A model generated the notes under the pieces. That model had not been told where the DNA came from and did no database searches. It worked only from the letters and a program-made list of their open reading frames with translations. 64,000 nucleotides of DNA, taken from assembly GCA_945867665.1 (NCBI GenBank), contig CAMBIR010000001.1, positions 156,168 to 220,167 on the forward strand, given 5' to 3'. This document shows positions 1,202 through 4,206 of this stretch, piece by piece. Both the position numbers and the translations under genes were made by a program. This stretch comes from an uncultured Bacillota bacterium (lineage in GTDB: Bacteria > Bacillota_I > Bacilli_A > RF39 > UBA660). Positions within the stretch are counted from its first letter, which is position 1. Each line of letters begins with the position of its first letter.

Positions 1202-1357
1202 TTAACAATATCTGCCACTTACGGCTCTTCTAATGGCTGACCCAACAGCTTGTCCTACATTAAACATTACTGATACAGTACGCATCATAGCGTTTAATAA
1301 GGCACTGCTAAATCCTCCTTTTATTTGTAACATTTCTTCTTTTTTTAATTCTGTCAT
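1202..1357 (-). CDS. Double-glycine bacteriocin precursor, peptide A
   Basis: A 51-residue precursor. The 15-residue leader ends K-G-G and has the expected E at -8, M at -7 and I at -4 for export and cleavage by a C39-peptidase ABC transporter. The predicted mature part is 36 residues, starts F-S-S-A-L-L, carries a G-Q-A-V-G (GxxxG) helix-packing motif, a basic A-I-R-R pair, and ends S-G-R-Y-C with a single cysteine. A GAAAGGAG ribosome site lies upstream. It lies 24 bases downstream of peptide B and upstream of the operon terminator. GxxxG in both neighbours suggests a class IIb two-peptide bacteriocin that forms membrane pores. That assignment is inference; the leader type and exporter are seen directly. 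No close named relative recognised. Confidence 0.85.
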   Translation of the reverse strand: MTELKKEEMLQIKGGFSSALLNAMMRTVSVMFNVGQAVGSAIRRAVSGRYC

Positions 1358-1381
1358 ACCCTTTTTCTCCTTTCTTATGGT

Positions 1382-1525
1382 TTAGTTATTGCATTTTTTA
1401 GGATTCATCAGCCCATCAATGATGCCAATAATGAAGGATGCTGCGGCACCAATTCCGGCCATTAAGCCCCAGTTTACTGCGCCTCCTTTGACTTCCATTA
1501 ATTCTTTGTTTTCCATTTTTTGCAT
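1382..1525 (-). CDS. Double-glycine bacteriocin precursor, peptide B
   Basis: A 47-residue precursor with ribosome site GAAAGGAGC. The leader ends E-L-M-E-V-K-G-G, a textbook double-glycine pattern (E at -8, L at -7, V at -4). The predicted 32-residue mature peptide starts A-V-N-W-G, is mostly hydrophobic, holds two GxxxG motifs (G-L-M-A-G and G-I-I-D-G), and ends with a charged tail containing its only cysteine. An alternative start three codons later would not change the mature product. Its pairing with peptide A by adjacency, size and GxxxG content fits a two-component membrane-active bacteriocin. Both genes follow the export genes in the same direction. Confidence 0.87.
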   Translation of the reverse strand: MQKMENKELMEVKGGAVNWGLMAGIGAAASFIIGIIDGLMNPKKCNN

Positions 1526-1539
1526 ATTTATGCTCCTTT

Positions 1540-1962
1540 CTATTCTTTAAAATATTCCATTATTTTTTTCTTCTTTTGAGGAATTTTTATGAGCAAATGA
1601 TATCCTTCTTTTTGATAGTTTTTTTCTAAATTGATTATTTCCAAGTAACATTTTTGATAATTAATATTATTTAGGTAAGTAATTTTATTGTCTTGTTTGA
1701 TTACTTTGTATTGATACTCTTTTTTTTCAATGATTATTTTTTCATTTGTTGTTATGTTAGAAACCTCCTTTTCCGGAATGAGTACCTCAAGATAAAATAA
1801 GGAGTTTTTGATTATTATTTCGGAGTGAAGTTGAATATAATTTTGATAAGTATAGGTATTCATTCCATATATGATATACATTATTAAAATAATTACGTTT
1901 AAAATAAAGATATAAATGAAAAAATTACATTTTTTATTTAAGATATAATAAGTATCAATCAT
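1540..1962 (-). CDS. Bacteriocin export accessory membrane protein (short HlyD-like)
   Basis: 140 residues: a short cytoplasmic N terminus, one strongly hydrophobic membrane helix (about 14-33), then a beta-rich extracytoplasmic part with many lysines. This layout resembles a membrane-fusion accessory protein of double-glycine peptide exporters reduced to the anchor and barrel, without the long coiled coil of full HlyD/LcnD proteins. Its start overlaps the end of the C39 exporter gene by 8 bases, so the two are translationally coupled, and the bacteriocin peptides follow 14 bases later. It could instead be the immunity protein of the locus, since no other candidate is present. Function is inferred from position and topology only. 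Confidence 0.6.
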   Translation of the reverse strand: MIDTYYILNKKCNFFIYIFILNVIILIMYIIYGMNTYTYQNYIQLHSEIIIKNSLFYLEVLIPEKEVSNITTNEKIIIEKKEYQYKVIKQDNKITYLNNINYQKCYLEIINLEKNYQKEGYHLLIKIPQKKKKIMEYFKE

Positions 1963-4042
1963 ATAATCTCTCCTTCAATAGATGGTTTATTTTTTTTGTT
2001 TCAAAATGAATTACTTGGTGAAATAGATCTTGATTTTCCATTCTATGAGAAACAATAATAATTGTTTTATTTGGATATTTAGAAAAAATATTATTTAAGA
2101 TTTTTCTTTCTAGTTGAATATCAATTGCGTTTAATCCCTCATCAATTAACATGATTTCTTTTTCTTGCAAGAGTAATCTTGCTAAGAGAATACGTTGTCT
2201 CTGTCCTCCAGAGAGATTTAGACCGTTTTCTTCTAATTTTGTTTGGTAACCTAAAAATAATTCTTTTACAAATTCATCTACACAAGTTAGTTTGCATACT
2301 TCTTGATATTTTTTTTGGTCAACATGTTGGAATAACGTAATATTATTAAAAATGGTATCGTTATATAAAATATCATTTTGACTCATTAAGGAAATATAGT
2401 TTCTAACATTTGCGATAGAACAATTATTAATATCTACATCATTTAAATAAATGGTATTATAATTTACTTCATAGTATTTCATTAATAATTTTAGGATGGT
2501 ACTTTTACCACTGCCTGAGGAACCTAAAATCATGATTTTATTTCCTTTTTGAATTTGTAAGTTGAAATTAGAAAAAATCATTTTTTCTTGATTGTAACTA
2601 AAAGATAAATTTCGAATTTGAATGTTACCATTTAAATCAAAATTAGTATTGGTGCTTAAGTTTTCTTCTTCAATTTCAAATAAGTGATTTACTCTTTTAA
2701 TGGAATTGATTAAGTAATAGTATTCTTTATTTAATTCAATTAAATTGGTAATTGGTGTTAAAAAAGAATTGGCAAGAAAAATATAAGTCATAAAGTATCC
2801 TATGGATAAATTTTTACTCATTACCATGTAAAATCCTAACATTTCTAGTAAGAGAAGCCCAATCGTTGAAACTAAATCTTTTATTAATAATTCTAAATTT
2901 AGAATGTTTTGATATTCAAAAGTATTATTTAGAGATTTTACATAAATTTTTTCTAGTTTTTCATTCATAATAAATTCCGTATTCATATTTTTAATTGTCT
3001 CAATACCACTGATTAATTCTGTTAAATATGATTGAAGTGTGGCATTGTTTTGCTGGCTTATATTGGTATATTTTTTTAATGTCGGTCTAAAAATTAAAAG
3101 AATACCAATATGAAGAGCACTAATCATTATTATCATGAGAAATAATTGTTTATTTAAGAGAAATAAAAGAGAACCTGATCCAATTAATAAAATTCCATCT
3201 AGACATACAGTGAGGATTAATTGGTTGATGAAGTTTTTTACATAAATTAGATCATTTAAACGGCTTATGATTTCTCCTGTTGTTCTGTTATGGTAATAAT
3301 GATAAGGAAGTAAAAGTATTTTTTTGAAAGTAAATAAGAAGATAGAACAGTCTAGTTTTTGACTAAAGAGAATAAAGACTTGATTTCTAATGAAATTACT
3401 AATTATTTTTAGTAAAATAATTATGCTAAAGAAAAAGGAAATAATAAAAAGATTCGTTTTTGTACTTTCTATAACAAAATCTAGAATAAACTCAAAATAT
3501 AGACTCCCTAGGCAAGAGAAAATTGTATAAATGATAGAAAGAAGCAGGATAGTTAAAATAATGCTTTTATTTTTTTTAAGAACTTTCTTTATCATTTGAT
3601 TCATATAATTTTTCTCTTTGATTTCTAATAATTGTTTAAATGGTTCGAAAATTAAAATATAGCCTGTCCATAATTTTTCAAACGAAGAAAGTGATAAACA
3701 CTTTTCACCAATAGCAGGATCCATCATGATGATTTTATCTCTTTTTAATTCATAGACAACAACGAAATGTTCATAGGAATGGTCAATTAATTGGCAGATA
3801 AAAGGTCTTTTTAACCCTTTTAGAGAGGATAATTTTTCTACTTTATAGCCAATAGAATTTAATCCTATTTGTTCACTAGCTTGTTTTAGTTGATAAAAGT
3901 TTGTTCCTTCTTTGGTTGTATTGGTCATTTCTACTAGTTTAGCTAATGAAATATTTCCTTTGTAATAGCGAATGATAGATAATAAAGAGGCAGCACCACA
4001 TTCTTTATATCCATCTTGTAGGACAATTAAATTTTTTTTCAT
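1955..4042 (-). CDS. Bacteriocin-processing ABC exporter (C39 peptidase + TM + ATPase)
   Basis: A 695-residue peptidase-containing ATP-binding transporter that cuts double-glycine leaders and exports the peptides. The C39 peptidase is at the N terminus: Q9 (oxyanion), C15 in K-E-C-G-A-A, H92 in E-H-F-V-V-V-Y and D108 in M-M-D-P. A membrane domain with about six helices covers roughly 155-440. The ATPase has Walker A GSSGSGKST, signature LSGGQRQR, Walker B M-L-I-D-E and an H-loop in I-V-S-H-R, so all catalytic residues are kept. The ribosome site is AGAGGAGG. It heads the operon that ends with the two bacteriocin peptides, which are its likely substrates. Confidence 0.95.
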   Translation of the reverse strand: MKKNLIVLQDGYKECGAASLLSIIRYYKGNISLAKLVEMTNTTKEGTNFYQLKQASEQIGLNSIGYKVEKLSSLKGLKRPFICQLIDHSYEHFVVVYELKRDKIIMMDPAIGEKCLSLSSFEKLWTGYILIFEPFKQLLEIKEKNYMNQMIKKVLKKNKSIILTILLLSIIYTIFSCLGSLYFEFILDFVIESTKTNLFIISFFFSIIILLKIISNFIRNQVFILFSQKLDCSIFLFTFKKILLLPYHYYHNRTTGEIISRLNDLIYVKNFINQLILTVCLDGILLIGSGSLLFLLNKQLFLMIIMISALHIGILLIFRPTLKKYTNISQQNNATLQSYLTELISGIETIKNMNTEFIMNEKLEKIYVKSLNNTFEYQNILNLELLIKDLVSTIGLLLLEMLGFYMVMSKNLSIGYFMTYIFLANSFLTPITNLIELNKEYYYLINSIKRVNHLFEIEEENLSTNTNFDLNGNIQIRNLSFSYNQEKMIFSNFNLQIQKGNKIMILGSSGSGKSTILKLLMKYYEVNYNTIYLNDVDINNCSIANVRNYISLMSQNDILYNDTIFNNITLFQHVDQKKYQEVCKLTCVDEFVKELFLGYQTKLEENGLNLSGGQRQRILLARLLLQEKEIMLIDEGLNAIDIQLERKILNNIFSKYPNKTIIIVSHRMENQDLFHQVIHFETKKINHLLKERLYD

Positions 4043-4206
4043 CTTTTACCTCCTCTAATTATATTATTCGCTCTTTTTTTCTAAAATCCTTCTTATTTTG
4101 AAAATTTTTTTTAAATTAGAGTGCTGGTATTGATTTTTCTTAATAAAATAAAGCGTTTAGAATGCCTTTTTTAGGTAAAAAAGGTTCTTTGAAATTTGAA
4201 AGATAT

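What the first reader, a model, noticed from the sequence alone, without database searches (positions are those of the whole stretch)
1202..4042. Compact two-peptide class II bacteriocin locus
Two tiny precursors with clear double-glycine leaders lie directly after a C39-peptidase exporter with intact catalytic C, H and D. Both mature peptides carry GxxxG helix-packing motifs, the mark of class IIb two-component bacteriocins. The mature sequences do not match a bacteriocin I can name, so this could be a new pair.
Basis: partly seen in the sequence, partly recalled or inferred. Interest (0 to 1): 0.75.

Follow-up and report, generated by a model that had tools for sequence, protein, structure and literature searches.

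The report
Order-wide two-peptide bacteriocin-like operon
The window holds a real operon for two small exported peptides built like a two-part bacterial toxin, and almost every member of this order of tiny-genome gut bacteria carries it and keeps it nearly unchanged, which is odd for a weapon gene and suggests a basic role in how they live.

Summary
The class IIb (two-peptide) reading is well supported by anatomy; activity is untested. pepA passes NCBIfam TIGR03949 (lactobin A/cerein 7B); pepB matches no named family above cut-off. Gene order is fixed; GxxxG occurs in 121/121 pepA and 119/119 pepB; each peptide has a near-invariant C-terminal Cys; mature peptides are under purifying selection and co-vary beyond phylogeny. 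The 140-aa protein is predicted to be a stripped-down membrane-fusion protein (TM helix plus beta-barrel). Nearly half the relatives, not the window, also encode a ~50-aa membrane protein overlapping pepB whose C-terminal half resembles pepB: a candidate mimicry immunity protein. Most likely: a secreted two-peptide membrane-active pair, possibly disulfide-linked. Why it is core is open. New variant of a known kind.

The parts
1955..4042 (-). C39-peptidase ABC exporter, 695 aa; C15/H92/D108 and Q9 intact; Walker A GSSGSGKS and signature LSGGQ present
1540..1962 (-). acc: 140-aa protein, N-terminal TM helix plus beta-barrel predicted to match the beta-barrel domain of membrane fusion proteins; putative minimal export accessory protein
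1382..1525 (-). pepA precursor, 47 aa; 15-aa GG leader (1525-1481), 32-aa mature hydrophobic peptide (1480-1385) with G19xxxG23, P27 and C30
1202..1357 (-). pepB precursor, 51 aa; 15-aa GG leader (1357-1313), 36-aa mature cationic peptide (1312-1205) with G20xxxG24, R28R29 and C36
1162..1198 (-). intrinsic-terminator-like hairpin with T tract just after pepB; end of operon
   Evidence: 3 such sites found, 0.9 expected
4058..4085 (-). promoter-like TTTAGA-16-TATAAT upstream of the exporter; position plausible but the scan is hardly above chance
   Evidence: 30 found, 23 expected

Best explanation
It is a four-gene operon that makes a secreted two-peptide, membrane-active agent of class IIb type. 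Both precursors are exported by the C39 ABC transporter, which cuts after the double glycine (inferred from conserved catalytic residues). acc, a single-pass protein with only the beta-barrel part of a membrane fusion protein, probably docks on the exporter and helps release (inferred). Outside the cell pepA (a hydrophobic membrane-spanning helix) and pepB (an amphipathic cationic helix) pair through the invariant GxxxG motifs (inferred) and permeabilise the membrane of susceptible neighbours (inferred from class IIb bacteriocins). The single C-terminal Cys of each window peptide cannot make an internal bond, so a disulfide between the two C-termini of a parallel pair is the simplest use (inferred). 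In relatives, a membrane protein overlapping pepB that carries a pepB-like GxxxG segment probably protects the producer by pairing with pepA in place of pepB (inferred); the window's genus lacks this gene and its protection is unexplained. The operon is nearly universal in its order (shown), so the agent probably serves something these bacteria all need.
For: Paired GG precursors plus C39 exporter with intact catalytic residues. pepA 28.3 bits vs cut-off 21.5 for TIGR03949, and 17 of 21 relatives match that model at E <= 0.01. GxxxG in 121/121 pepA and 119/119 pepB against 46% and 25% in shuffles; C-terminal Cys in 120/121 and 118/119. Net charge +1 (pepA) and +4 (pepB), amphipathic pepB. pepA and pepB occur together or not at all: 109 of 117 genomes have pepA, none of them lacks pepB, and six lack both. 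pepA and pepB distances correlate beyond rpoB and exporter trees (partial Mantel r 0.49, 0 of 5000 permutations as high). acc model pLDDT 91 with the 22 best VIA-align rows all membrane fusion proteins (BesA Z 9.7, MacA 9.2, Spr0693 9.0). Candidate immunity gene overlapping pepB in 59 of 140 relatives' loci, profile match to pepB prob 94%, E 9e-8; known short immunity proteins CbnZ (42 aa), BrcI (53), AbpIM (55) are of like size, CbnZ at a like position (PMC6957408).
Against: No activity data. No immunity gene found in the window or its genus, and 22 relatives' loci show neither acc nor pepC in the profile scan. Bacteriocins are normally accessory genes, whereas this is nearly core. Mature peptides show purifying, not diversifying, selection (synonymous sites near saturation, so ratios are rough). 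pepB is below the cut-off of every NCBIfam and Pfam model.
Confidence: 0.7

Rival explanations
1. A core life-style function rather than a weapon: the pair makes leaks in neighbouring bacterial (or host) membranes so that these auxotrophs can take up fatty acids, nucleotides and amino acids. It works like a class IIb pore but is kept for feeding. (This overlaps with the best explanation in mechanism and differs in purpose.)
For: Nearly universal and mostly single-copy in the order (172 of 180 good genomes); purifying selection on the mature peptides about as strong as on the exporter; FabF-type ketoacyl synthase missing in 96 of 98 genomes, and RF39, the likely order, was reported to lack fatty acid synthesis (PMC6784871).
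Against: No direct evidence for release or uptake of nutrients; correlation across one clade only; the few genomes without the pair presumably share the same reduced life style.
Confidence: 0.25
2. The two peptides are signals (pheromones) sensed by kin.
For: GG-leader peptides and C39 exporters also serve quorum signals; the exporter aligns to the competence-factor exporter ComA at 304 bits.
Against: No histidine kinase or regulator is in the operon; two different peptides always made together with invariant GxxxG; long hydrophobic membrane helix in pepA; matches to ComC or induction-factor models are single weak ones.
Confidence: 0.07
3. The peptides are retained in the producer's own envelope as a structural or channel complex, with pepC where present.
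For: pepC carries the same GxxxG-x-x-R segment as pepB without a leader and is made from an overlapping gene; no universal immunity gene.
Against: pepC is missing in about half the loci including the window, while both peptides always keep an export leader.
Confidence: 0.08

Closest known systems
Class IIb two-peptide bacteriocins (lactococcin G, plantaricin S, carnobacteriocin XY)
   Same: Two adjacent GG-leader peptides, exporter, accessory protein, GxxxG in both peptides; cluster described as two precursors, immunity, transporter and accessory protein (PMC6957408, PMC6382864)
   Different: Nearly universal in a whole order; purifying selection; one Cys per window peptide; accessory protein only 140 aa; no immunity gene identified in the window
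NCBIfam TIGR03949 (lactobin A/cerein 7B family)
   Same: pepA scores 28.3 against a cut-off of 21.5; 17 of 21 relatives match at E <= 0.01
   Different: pepB does not match above cut-off; the matching region of pepA includes the leader, so the score says little about function
Gallocin A (two-peptide bacteriocin with disulfides, PMC10100652, title and abstract only)
   Same: Cysteine-containing two-peptide bacteriocin of a gut bacterium
   Different: Its disulfides are intramolecular; here a single Cys per peptide excludes that
Short two-peptide immunity proteins CbnZ, BrcI, AbpIM (PMC6957408)
   Same: 42-55 aa; [quoted passage not shown] resembles pepC of relatives
   Different: pepC shares the GxxxG-x-x-R segment of its own pepB; a search for mimicry in the paper library brought none to light from titles and abstracts; absent from the window
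Membrane fusion proteins (BesA, MacA, Spr0693; LcnD-type accessory proteins)
   Same: acc predicted to have the same beta-barrel domain behind a TM helix, next to an exporter
   Different: No lipoyl domain and no coiled-coil hairpin; about a third of the usual length (usual length from memory)

Membership tests
Class IIb two-peptide bacteriocin | Two adjacent precursors with double-glycine leaders | tested here: met
Class IIb two-peptide bacteriocin | Dedicated C39 ABC exporter with intact catalytic residues | tested here: met
Class IIb two-peptide bacteriocin | GxxxG or GxxxG-like motif in both mature peptides | tested here: met
   121/121 and 119/119 against 46% and 25% in shuffles
Class IIb two-peptide bacteriocin | Accessory export protein | tested here: met
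   acc, by predicted fold only; short; missing in some relatives
Class IIb two-peptide bacteriocin | Dedicated immunity protein in the cluster | tested here: inconclusive
   None recognisable in the window or its genus; candidate pepC in 59 of 140 loci, plus shorter forms. Immunity proteins of this class show very little similarity to each other (PMC6957408)
Class IIb two-peptide bacteriocin | Both peptides needed for full antimicrobial activity | not testable with these tools
   Needs synthetic peptides; only co-occurrence and co-variation were tested
Class IIb two-peptide bacteriocin | Unmodified peptides (no modification enzyme in operon) | tested here: met
   Operon has only exporter, acc, pepA, pepB
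TIGR03949 lactobin A/cerein 7B (pepA) | Score above curated cut-off | tested here: met
   pepA 28.3 vs 21.5 bits
TIGR03949 lactobin A/cerein 7B (pepB) | Score above curated cut-off | tested here: not met
   no match listed for pepB at E <= 10
Membrane fusion protein (acc) | Beta-barrel domain of the family | tested here: met
   VIA-align Z up to 9.7 with 22 membrane fusion proteins ranked first; Foldseek E only 0.018 at best
Membrane fusion protein (acc) | Lipoyl domain and coiled-coil hairpin | tested here: not met
   140 aa; model has only the TM helix and one beta-barrel. So it is like, not a full member of, the family

The most novel reading that the evidence does not exclude
A two-peptide pore is an ancestral, near-essential trait of a whole order of auxotrophic gut bacteria, used to leak nutrients or lipids from neighbours, with a disulfide-joined heterodimer, a minimal fusion-protein adaptor, and (in about half the members) immunity by a membrane-anchored mimic of one toxin peptide.
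Probability: 0.2. Interest if true: 0.88.

Novelty: new variant of a known kind. Interest (0 to 1): 0.62.

Why it matters
Bacteriocins are thought of as patchy, fast-changing accessory weapons. An order-wide, conserved pair in bacteria that have discarded most of their biosynthesis would mean that a secreted membrane-active peptide pair is part of their basic life style. It could help explain how these uncultured gut bacteria survive and suggest what they need in culture. The pepB-like small membrane protein makes a question described as a mystery (how immunity to two-peptide bacteriocins works, PMC6957408) directly testable: does a decoy of one peptide neutralise the pair?

Tried and rejected
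Searched for a pepC-like immunity gene in the window genome and genus: only pepB itself or chance hits; no short membrane ORF follows pepB in the window. Rfam found only the two tRNAs. Solved-structure search with the pepB profile found nothing real. The 0.79 correlation of pepA and pepB distances was inflated by one genome with placeholder sequences; recomputed without it, r = 0.64. Pheromone reading rejected as unlikely (no regulator, weak single hits). Four matches to the pepB profile outside the family are leader-only and were discounted. Exporter and rpoB trees agree only in part (15 of 22 well-supported exporter clades recovered, 7 contradicted), so strict vertical descent is not claimed. 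Paper searches for bacteriocins in RF39/Tenericutes found no description of this system, and none of a disulfide-linked two-peptide bacteriocin; the library lacks most subscription papers.

Full report
What is there. The minus strand of window 4042-1202 is one operon: a 695-aa C39-peptidase ABC exporter, a 140-aa protein (acc) whose start overlaps the exporter's stop, pepA (47 aa) and pepB (51 aa), closed by a terminator-like hairpin at 1198-1162 and followed by a tRNA-Thr gene. Pfam confirms Peptidase_C39, ABC_membrane and ABC_tran; C15, H92, D108 and Q9 are invariant among 12 relatives, and the protein aligns over residues 2-669 with the solved peptidase exporter PCAT1. Both precursors have 15-aa leaders ending in GG.

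Relatives. A profile of pepB (21 sequences) finds it in 267 of 291 genomes of the window's GTDB family, 196 of 206 good ones, 144 of 150 genera, and in an order-level sample in 172 of 180 good genomes; all genomes of that order sample belong to the same family. rpoB, as a yardstick for missing pieces in draft genomes, was found in 58 of 61. In a class-level sample of 395 genomes, about 340 lie in other families and gave only four weak hits that cover the leader part alone. pepA is found in 109 of 117 genomes; of the eight without it, six lack pepB too and two have weak pepB matches (in one, G013, a divergent pepA sits beside it); no genome in that sample has pepA without pepB. So the pair is nearly core, mostly at a single locus, and obligately paired.

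Operon anatomy. In 60 loci taken around pepB and 80 loci found independently by the exporter's C39 domain in a public genome collection, the order exporter-(acc)-pepA-pepB is fixed; by profile, 51 loci have exporter-acc-A-B-C, 49 exporter-acc-A-B, 22 exporter-A-B and 7 exporter-A-B-C; the two samples overlap in part. Genes overlap or nearly touch. The public records are metagenome genomes, many from the gut or rumen, named Bacilli, Tenericutes or Erysipelotrichaceae bacterium; a FabF-type ketoacyl synthase domain is absent in 96 of 98 genomes although present in 10 of 14 control genomes. This fits the uncultured order RF39, reported to have lost fatty acid synthesis (PMC6784871; RF39/UBA660 also in PMC13155120), but the name is an inference.

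The peptides. Across 121 distinct pepA and 119 distinct pepB mature sequences, GxxxG is present in every one (shuffles: 46% and 25%); a Cys is present in 120 of 121 and 118 of 119, near the C-terminus, and in 130 of 131 loci both peptides have it; 109 pepA and 114 pepB have exactly one; pepB also keeps RR (or HR) behind the motif in 109. pepA is a hydrophobic helix, pepB cationic and amphipathic. Between genomes of one genus dN/dS is about 0.15-0.20 for mature pepA and 0.16-0.18 for mature pepB, against 0.21-0.22 for the exporter, 0.38-0.40 for acc, 0.32 for pepC and 0.07 for rpoB (synonymous sites are near saturation, so the ranking matters more than the values). This is purifying selection, not the diversification expected of an arms race. 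Distances of pepA and pepB correlate (r 0.64), still so after removing rpoB and exporter distances (partial r 0.49, none of 5000 permutations as high).

Naming. pepA passes the NCBIfam model TIGR03949 (class IIb, lactobin A/cerein 7B), pepB passes none. Class IIb clusters are described as two precursors, immunity, transporter and accessory protein, with GxxxG or GxxxG-like motifs (PMC6957408, PMC6382864).

acc. No Pfam or NCBIfam match. With 42 sequences AlphaFold2 gives pLDDT 91: one long N-terminal helix and a small beta-barrel. Foldseek matches are weak (best E 0.018) but lead with membrane fusion proteins; in the VIA-align second look the first 22 rows are all membrane fusion or adaptor proteins, Z 7.5-9.7, with unrelated barrels below. 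I read acc as a membrane fusion protein reduced to its beta-barrel. It is lost in several loci and a truncated relic in one congener (G001), so it helps but is not indispensable, and it is unlikely to be the only immunity factor.

pepC. The pepB profile itself picked up a second small ORF just downstream of pepB in many relatives. It has no leader, an N-terminal hydrophobic segment, and a C-terminal [FY]xxGxxxG[TS]xxR segment like that of pepB; G, G and R are invariant in 23 sequences, and profile comparison with pepB gives prob 94%, E 9e-8. Still shorter forms exist. By size and position it resembles known short immunity proteins (CbnZ, BrcI, AbpIM; PMC6957408). Immunity by mimicking one peptide is my inference. 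The window's genus has no pepC, so how the window's organism protects itself is unknown.

Mechanism, step by step. Shown: genes, order, conservation, pairing, catalytic residues. Predicted: acc fold. Inferred: cleavage after GG, export, helix pairing through GxxxG, a disulfide between the C-termini, membrane permeabilisation, pepC immunity. The reason for order-wide retention is open; a nutrient-leak role is attractive for auxotrophs but untested.

Verdict. A sound class IIb-type locus (new variant of a known kind) whose surprise lies in its being part of the near-core genome of a whole uncultured order.

Noticed in passing
L189:9467-9640: pepA is interrupted near its 3' end, apparently by an inserted element (a replication-protein-like ORF follows), and no pepB follows: a natural disruption of the operon.
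   Followed up: partly
L145:3878-4451 (genome G051): Tandem duplication of the pair (A-B-A-B); the downstream copy lacks the Cys residues.
   Followed up: no
L013:3595-3720 (genome G001, same genus): acc survives only as a relic of its N-terminal TM segment in a congener that keeps exporter and both peptides.
   Followed up: partly
G013 and G088 (genomes of the same family): The only two of 98 genomes with a FabF-type ketoacyl synthase; G013 also has a very diverged pepA/pepB, so it may be an early branch of the order.
   Followed up: no
L095, L150, L155: about 105-111 bases after pepB: A roughly 196-198-aa hydrophobic protein follows pepB on the same strand in a few loci that lack pepC; possible alternative immunity gene.
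   Followed up: no
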